Notes under the pieces: model-generated
Told to the model about the DNA's origin: nothing
Database searches by the model: none
Seen by the model: only the letters and a program-made list of their open reading frames with translations
Translations under genes and position numbers: made by a program
Shown: piece after piece, positions 35,997 to 37,057 of the stretch
Layout of the letters: each line of letters opens with the position of its first letter
How positions within the stretch are numbered: the first letter of the stretch is position 1
Assembly (NCBI GenBank): GCA_020847535.1
Contig: JADLBU010000083.1
Location: 62,001-126,000, forward strand
Origin: Phycisphaerales bacterium
Lineage (GTDB): Bacteria > Planctomycetota > Phycisphaerae > Phycisphaerales > UBA1924
Reading direction: 5' to 3'
DNA: 64,000 bases

Positions 35997-36109
35997 GGCC
36001 CCAGCGGGGCCGCGGGTTGTAGCCACGGGTGGAGCGATGCGGCTCTGAGCGTCGCGGAACCCGTGGAAGACGAGAGGGAGACGCGGGCCGCCCCGGCAGG
36101 GGCGGAGGA
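35997..36109. repeat. Left imperfect inverted repeat flanking the FRG-domain gene
   Basis: ccccagcggggc...tgtagccacgggtggagcg...gcggaacccgtggaag...gccccggcaggggcggagga. Confidence 0.85.
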
Positions 36110-36125
36110 AGTACGATCTAAATAC

Positions 36126-36935
36126 ATGAAGTGCGAGGAAACGACGGTCACAGGCATCGAAACGCTTTTCGGTGCTCTCCACGCGCTCGGCGACCCGTCC
36201 AATCGTTCCGTCTGTCGCGGCCACGCCCGCGCGAAATGGCAATTGCAGCCGTCGATCGATCGAGATGTGGTGCCCAGCACCTTGTACTCGCAAAGGCTTG
36301 ATGAGGAGCGGTGCCTCATCGAAAAGTTTCGACGTCGCGCAGAGAACCTTCTTGGTGAAGTGGAATGGCAGTTTGTGTCGCAGGCAGGACCTTCGAACTT
36401 GGTATTGCCCATGACCGTCATGCAGCATTATGGCGCACCGACGCGATTGCTCGATTGGAGCATGTCGCCGTTTGTCGCCGCGTTTTTCGCGGTGATTGAT
36501 TCACTCGATCAAGACGGTGCGGTGTGGTGGTTCCGAATTAGTGCATTCGAGAGTGCCGCCGCTGAACAGTGGGACCGTCTCGGGATGCGGTCTCGACCCG
36601 GTGAAGACGTGGATTACAACCTCTTTGCATTCAAGGAGGACAGCCCGCCGTTCCTTGGAATGACCTGTCTGAGGATCCCATTTGAGCGAGCAGAAGCGCA
36701 ACAGGGACTCTTTACCATTTCGGGGCGACTTGGGCTGCTCCACGACGACCTTCTCTGTGGCCTATTGCCCGGCCAGAACTTCGGGAAGATCGTCATCCCA
36801 TCGCGGATCAAACGCGAGGCGTTGGAGATGCTCAAAGCGACGAACGTAACTGCCAAGAGCTTGGAGCACGTTGGAGCCGATCGCCTAGGTTTGCGAATGA
36901 GCTTGGACCGACAAACAGCGAGATCCCTATCCTGA
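36126..36935 (+). CDS. FRG-domain protein
   Basis: SVCRGHARAKWQLQPSIDRD and MQHYGAPTRLLDWSMSPFVAAFFAV; upstream part of the ORF (36063-36125) lies in or next to the left repeat, so ATG 36126 is preferred. Confidence 0.82.
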   Translation: MKCEETTVTGIETLFGALHALGDPSNRSVCRGHARAKWQLQPSIDRDVVPSTLYSQRLDEERCLIEKFRRRAENLLGEVEWQFVSQAGPSNLVLPMTVMQHYGAPTRLLDWSMSPFVAAFFAVIDSLDQDGAVWWFRISAFESAAAEQWDRLGMRSRPGEDVDYNLFAFKEDSPPFLGMTCLRIPFERAEAQQGLFTISGRLGLLHDDLLCGLLPGQNFGKIVIPSRIKREALEMLKATNVTAKSLEHVGADRLGLRMSLDRQTARSLS

Positions 36936-36940
36936 CGCGC

Positions 36941-37057
36941 TCCTCCGCCCCTGCCGGGGCGGGACCATTGAATGTCTCACCTTCCACGGGTTCCGCGTCT
37001 GCGGGCTGAGCCGCGCCGCCGCTCCACCCGTGGCTACAGCCCATCGCCCCGTTGGGG
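36941..37057. repeat. Right imperfect inverted repeat flanking the FRG-domain gene
   Basis: tcctccgcccctgccggggc...cttccacgggttccgc...cgctccacccgtggctaca...ccccgttgggg, reverse complement of 35997-36109. Confidence 0.85.

What the first reader, a model, noticed from the sequence alone, without database searches (positions are those of the whole stretch)
35997..37057. FRG-domain gene enclosed by ~115-bp inverted repeats: a candidate transposase-less gene cassette
Seen directly: the segment left of the gene and the reverse complement of the segment right of it share long identical blocks in the same order (TGTAGCCACGGGTGGAGCG, GCGGAACCCGTGGAAG, GCCCCGGCAGGGGCGGAGGA), spanning ~113 and ~117 bp. 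The preferred start (36126) is 16 bp inside the left repeat, the stop (36935) is 5 bp from the right repeat, and there is no other gene between them. Each repeat has internal hairpins (CCCC-AGC/AAC-GGGG, CCACGGGT/ACCCGTGG, CCCCGGCAGGGG). The gene also looks less GC-biased than its neighbours. Inference: FRG domains are poorly characterised and recur near defence or mobile loci, so this could be a defence-type cargo unit moved by recombination between dispersed structured repeats or by a trans-acting enzyme.
Basis: partly seen in the sequence, partly recalled or inferred. Interest (0 to 1): 0.82.

Follow-up and report, generated by a model that had tools for sequence, protein, structure and literature searches.

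The report
Defence gene bracketed by REP repeats
A likely anti-virus gene in this planctomycete sits alone between two mirror-image copies of a repeat that is normally tied to a 'domesticated' jumping-gene enzyme, and related bacteria carry other single defence genes in the same brackets, which suggests an unrecognised way of packaging and perhaps moving such genes.

Summary
Two ~115-bp inverted repeats bracket one FRG-domain gene. Each repeat is a GTAG-type REP: a GTAG-footed hairpin between two smaller hairpins, with strong covariation across 106 copies. The 4.9-Mb genome holds only about 20-24 copies. A second bracketed gene (GIY-YIG type, L010) lies in the same genome beside an IS200-like RAYT gene that carries the same REPs. 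In relatives, about 26 RAYT genes sit in the same repeats. Among consecutive REPs 450-1410 bp apart without a RAYT, 9 of 12 pairs face each other as here (p = 4e-4). I found 11 REP-gene-REP units without a RAYT. Six carry predicted defence genes: FRG, a PD-T7-5 homologue, a PDC-S11 nuclease, an Mrr-type nuclease, a TIR-like effector and a type IIG restriction enzyme. Only 1 of 20 flanking control genes matched, through a generic ATPase fold (p = 0.004). All 11 interiors are GC-poorer than their surroundings. Best reading: REP-bounded accessory-gene cassettes, sharing ends with RAYT elements and REPINs, probably mobilised by RAYT in trans. Transposition itself is not shown: there is no clean empty site, the two arms of a cassette are not each other's closest copies, and FRG and GIY-YIG homologues below ~57% identity mostly lack REPs.

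The parts
35997..36112 (+). left REP copy: hairpin H1 35997-36011, GTAG 36019-36022, hairpin H2 36023-36066, hairpin H3 36088-36105, then AGGA
   Evidence: covariance model 95.2 bits; DNA fold; alignment with own-genome copies
36126..36935 (+). FRG-domain gene, 269 aa, the only gene between the repeats
   Evidence: Pfam PF08867 E 5.3e-19; PADLOC candidate family PDC-S15 E 1.5e-27; confident fold prediction, pLDDT 93.7
36938..37058 (-). right REP copy, inverted: H3' 36944-36962, H2' 36984-37033, CTAC (reverse of GTAG) 37034-37037, H1' about 37045-37057
   Evidence: covariance model 99.6 bits; inverted-repeat table

Best explanation
The unit at 35997-37058 is a REP-bounded single-gene cassette. 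Shown: its ends are two inverted copies of a GTAG-type REP; the same REPs, in the same facing arrangement, enclose RAYT (IS200-like TnpA_REP) genes and gene-less REPINs in this and related genomes; and a recurring minority of units enclose one accessory gene instead, often a predicted phage-defence gene. Inferred: the ends are recognised as single-stranded hairpins by a RAYT acting in trans, so the unit is (or was) a non-autonomous, cargo-carrying relative of the REPtron. The cargo here is an FRG protein, probably an infection-triggered effector; its biochemistry was not tested.
For: REP family with GTAG foot and covariation. RAYT at own contig C83:11136-11480, immediately beside a second REP-gene-REP unit; own RAYT at C35 between diverged inverted REPs. 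About 26 REP-RAYT-REP loci in relatives, the stop codon of many lying about 23 bp from the 3' REP. Eleven RAYT-less REP-gene-REP units: FRG, GIY-YIG, PD-T7-5, PDC-S11/NucS-like, Mrr, TIR-like, type IIG, three small unknowns, and a two-gene channel plus SAP-domain unit. Defence hits 6/11 against 1/20 flanking controls, Fisher p 0.0036. Facing orientation in 9 of 12 non-RAYT pairs, p 4e-4; random placement expects about 1 facing pair, P(>=9) below 5e-5. All 11 interiors GC-poorer than flanks by 4.5-16 points. In G346 a REPIN beside a cassette has arms 92% and 98% identical to that cassette's arms and holds a 21-bp RAYT remnant. Metagenomic FRG homologues P0002 (81%) and P0004 (69%) and GIY-YIG homologue P0125 (72%) have terminal peptides that look like translated REP H3, suggesting REPs at their ends too.
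Against: No complete empty site was found; in the congener G468 only one flank of each of three cassette loci is conserved. Within a cassette the two arms are usually not each other's closest copies. REPtron arms separate into 5' and 3' types (29 of 33), but cargo arms do not sort cleanly into one of each. FRG homologues at 56% and GIY-YIG homologues at 38-56% have no REPs. [quoted passage not shown]
Confidence: 0.55

Rival explanations
1. REPINs are landing sites. A foreign gene entered an existing REP pair, or was swapped in by recombination between dispersed REPs, and the repeats play no part in transposing it afterwards.
For: Gene-less REPINs with the same arms are common (56 facing pairs under 300 bp in 15 genomes). 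A REPIN lies directly beside cassettes in L337 and L359. Arms of one cassette are not closest partners. Interiors are foreign-looking.
Against: Needs repeated independent capture of single genes fitted closely between the repeats (stops 5-120 bp from a REP) in several genera.
Confidence: 0.27
2. REPs inserted separately on both sides of accessory genes because such regions tolerate insertions; the pairing is incidental.
For: Single REP copies occur next to ordinary genes. REP-free homologues exist. Cargo arms are not cleanly one 5' and one 3' type.
Against: Facing orientation in 9 of 12 pairs (p 4e-4) and far more facing pairs than random placement gives. The same geometry is shared with RAYT loci. 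Terminal peptides suggest the association persists in 69-81% identical homologues.
Confidence: 0.13
3. The repeats serve expression, as hairpin terminators or insulators and a ribosome-binding site around a resident gene, and have nothing to do with movement.
For: Strong GC hairpins at both ends. The inner end reads GGAGG/GAAGG, and in six of 14 REPtrons examined the RAYT start codon follows 5-7 nt after it.
Against: For FRG the GGAGG is 16 nt or more from the ATG, and for GIY-YIG over 40 nt. Gene-less REPINs and RAYT association point to a mobile family.
Confidence: 0.05

Closest known systems
REPtron (RAYT/TnpA_REP gene flanked by GTAG REPs)
   Same: same repeats, facing arrangement, single gene, close spacing to the repeats
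   Different: the RAYT gene is absent and an FRG gene sits in its place
REPIN / BIME (inverted REP doublet)
   Same: facing pair of REPs with GTAG on the outside, non-autonomous
   Different: REPIN spacers are tens of bases and non-coding; here 830 bp with a complete gene
Mobile insertion cassettes (MICs) and transporter IS
   Same: passenger gene between IS-type ends without a transposase
   Different: known MICs have short terminal inverted repeats of DDE-type IS families; these ends are long hairpin REPs tied to a HUH/Y1 enzyme
Integron gene cassettes (attC)
   Same: single genes beside structured recombination sites
   Different: attC sites lie in direct orientation, one per gene, and use an integron integrase; these repeats face each other and carry GTAG-footed REP hairpins

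Membership tests
GTAG-type REP | GTAG tetranucleotide at the foot of a hairpin | tested here: met
   invariant GTAGCC directly before H2 in the 11 aligned own-genome copies
GTAG-type REP | conserved secondary structure rather than sequence alone | tested here: met
   96.1% of cells paired, two-sided changes at 16 of 22 pairs, 0/500 shuffles as good
GTAG-type REP | dispersed extragenic copies | tested here: met
   about 20-24 copies in the own genome, up to 90 in G346; low for a REP family
GTAG-type REP | flanks a cognate RAYT gene in the same genome | tested here: met
   Y1_Tnp gene at C83:11136-11480 with REPs on both sides
REPtron | encodes a RAYT between the REPs | tested here: not met
   only an FRG gene lies between the repeats
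REPIN | two REPs in inverted orientation | tested here: met
REPIN | short non-coding spacer | tested here: not met
   833 bp between the model matches, with an 810-bp gene
Mobile insertion cassette (IS ends with passenger gene) | ends match those of an autonomous element in the genome | tested here: met
   arms align with the REPs beside the own-genome RAYT
Mobile insertion cassette (IS ends with passenger gene) | evidence of insertion (empty site or target duplication) | tested here: inconclusive
   no shared neighbourhood in relatives; only one-sided synteny for three cassette loci in G468
FRG-domain (PDC-S15) candidate defence gene | FRG domain match | tested here: met
   Pfam 69.4 bits against cut-off 25; PADLOC PDC-S15
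FRG-domain (PDC-S15) candidate defence gene | ADP-ribosyltransferase fold or NADase activity, as proposed for FRG | tested here: inconclusive
   no significant solved relative by sequence or fold; proposal in PMC9503650
FRG-domain (PDC-S15) candidate defence gene | protects cells from phage | not testable with these tools
   needs a phage challenge assay
Integron cassette | attC sites in direct orientation flanking each gene | tested here: not met
   the repeats are inverted, not direct
Integron cassette | integron integrase in the genome | not tested
   not searched for

The most novel reading that the evidence does not exclude
RAYT transposases in Phycisphaerae-type planctomycetes still mobilise, in trans, a population of REP-bounded single-gene cassettes that spread stand-alone anti-phage genes, so a supposedly domesticated transposase family acts as a transport system for immunity genes.
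Probability: 0.35. Interest if true: 0.88.

Novelty: new variant of a known kind. Interest (0 to 1): 0.7.

Why it matters
RAYTs are regarded as domesticated enzymes that spread only tiny REP/REPIN repeats. REP-bounded cassettes loaded with different single-gene defence systems would give REPs a cargo function, suggest a route by which isolated defence genes travel outside defence islands, and offer a simple search rule (facing REPs with one gene between) for finding new defence genes.

Tried and rejected
Empty-site test at the esterase/DUF1905 locus: the neighbourhood is not conserved even within the genus. Empty sites for G346 cassettes in congener G468: about 0.99 Mb read in pieces; neighbour genes found but only one flank conserved. 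Matching-arms test for unit movement: not supported. 5'/3' end typing of cargo arms: inconclusive. Universal FRG-REP or GIY-YIG-REP linkage: rejected, distant homologues lack REPs. Rfam family for the repeat: none. The repeat on plasmids: none. Virus-borne cassettes: five viral contigs carry the repeat, mostly as gene-less pairs. Fold comparison of the FRG model with solved structures: nothing significant. Literature search for REP/RAYT-flanked cargo or defence genes: nothing found in the open-access library.

Full report
OBSERVATION. Three blocks left of the FRG gene recur inverted and in order on its right, giving two ~115-bp copies at 35997-36112 and 36938-37058. The 269-aa gene between them (36126-36935) is the only gene there; it matches Pfam FRG and the PADLOC candidate-defence family PDC-S15. 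Each copy folds into three hairpins.

WHAT THE REPEAT IS. In own-genome copies the middle hairpin is always preceded by GTAG. A GTAG foot followed by a hairpin is the published hallmark of REPs linked to RAYT transposases (PMC3733652, PMC6006769). A covariance model finds about 20-24 copies in this 4.94-Mb genome and up to 90 in a relative. Across 106 copies, 96% of cells are paired and 16 of 22 pairs show compensatory changes, far above shuffled and slid controls. Rfam has no matching family.

RAYT LINK. The own genome has an intact-looking Y1_Tnp/IS200-like gene at C83:11136-11480 with REPs on both sides, and another at C35 between diverged inverted REPs. In relatives I found about 26 REP-RAYT-REP loci; in most the RAYT, in either orientation, fills the space between facing REPs. 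In six of 14 REPtrons examined, the inner end of the 5' REP (GAAGG and similar) lies 5-7 nt before the RAYT start codon, so the repeat may also supply the ribosome-binding site.

OTHER CASSETTES. Directly beside the own RAYT is a second REP(+)-gene-REP(-) unit, with a GIY-YIG/T5orf172-type gene. In relatives: L355 (G346) carries a homologue of the phage-defence protein PD-T7-5 (E 5.5e-72); L359 a PDC-S11 NucS-like nuclease (1.7e-131); L357 an Mrr-type nuclease (its 5' region is unclear and may be frameshifted); L361 a TIR-like effector (3.5e-16); L362 a type IIG restriction enzyme; L344, L337 and L358 small unknowns, L337's apparently frameshifted; L097 a two-gene unit with an ion channel and a SAP-domain protein. 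Six of 11 units carry predicted defence genes against 1 of 20 flanking control proteins, that one a generic ABC ATPase match (Fisher p 0.0036). PDC families are candidates, not validated systems; PD-T7-5 is, to my knowledge, experimentally validated in E. coli. The controls were picked by a length and codon-composition rule, and fetched regions were chosen for REP spacing, so the enrichment needs an unbiased survey.

STATISTICS. In 15 genomes with per-genome lists, consecutive REPs 450-1410 bp apart without a RAYT face each other in 9 of 12 cases (binomial p 4e-4). The distance limits were chosen after seeing the list, so the p-value is indicative. Random placement of the same number of copies expects about one facing pair at this spacing, and none of 20,000 simulations reached nine. 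Beyond about 1.4 kb orientation is not biased. All 11 interiors are GC-poorer than their flanks.

RELATION TO REPINS. In L337 a gene-less REPIN next to a cassette has arms 92% and 98% identical to the cassette's arms and contains a 21-bp remnant of a RAYT 3' end. So cassette, REPIN and REPtron belong to one family there.

IS IT MOBILE? Against: no clean empty site. In the congener G468, orthologues of genes beside three G346 cassettes were found with no REP and no cargo in the pieces read, but only one flank is conserved. Arms of a cassette are often not closest partners, and 5'/3' typing of cargo arms is ambiguous. FRG homologues at 56% identity or less mostly lack REPs; the exception is G050, where a 36% identical FRG gene sits downstream of a REPtron with one REP upstream and none downstream. 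I therefore give trans-mobilisation by RAYT about even odds or slightly less, and the recurring-cassette reading much higher odds.

CARGO FUNCTION. FRG domains have been placed in the ADP-ribosyltransferase superfamily as possible NADase effectors of prokaryotic immunity (PMC9503650). My model is confident (pLDDT 93.7) but matched no solved fold significantly, so this is unverified. FRG relatives are common on viral contigs (148 loci), as expected of accessory immunity genes.

Noticed in passing
L010 441-935 (own contig C83, outside the window): RAYT gene lies between two REPs in the same orientation, directly beside the GIY-YIG cassette, so the REPtron looks disrupted or extended by that cassette.
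   Followed up: partly
L090 / L369 (G050:C229): An FRG homologue (36% identity) sits just downstream of a REPtron with one REP upstream and none downstream.
   Followed up: partly
L012 and L013 (own contigs C2 and C32, last ~330 bp): Both contigs end in nearly the same sequence containing a REP, so the assembly breaks in a longer repeated element that was not resolved.
   Followed up: no
L098, L100, L340, L365, L090, L110 REPtrons: The inner end of the 5' REP lies 5-7 nt before the RAYT start codon and may supply its ribosome-binding site.
   Followed up: partly
L432-L436 (IMG/VR contigs): Five viral contigs contain this REP, mostly as gene-less facing pairs; host contamination or prophage origin not resolved.
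   Followed up: no
L089 (own contig C58): A second FRG gene (39% identity) in the same genome has no REPs nearby.
   Followed up: yes
L106 (G005:C11 about 2350-3255) and L109 (G034:C10): Tandem arrays of REPs or REPINs with a fixed period (about 167 and 319 bp).
   Followed up: no
window 36063-36935: The FRG reading frame is open upstream through REP hairpin H3 to a GTG at 36063, so a longer protein starting inside the REP is possible.
   Followed up: no
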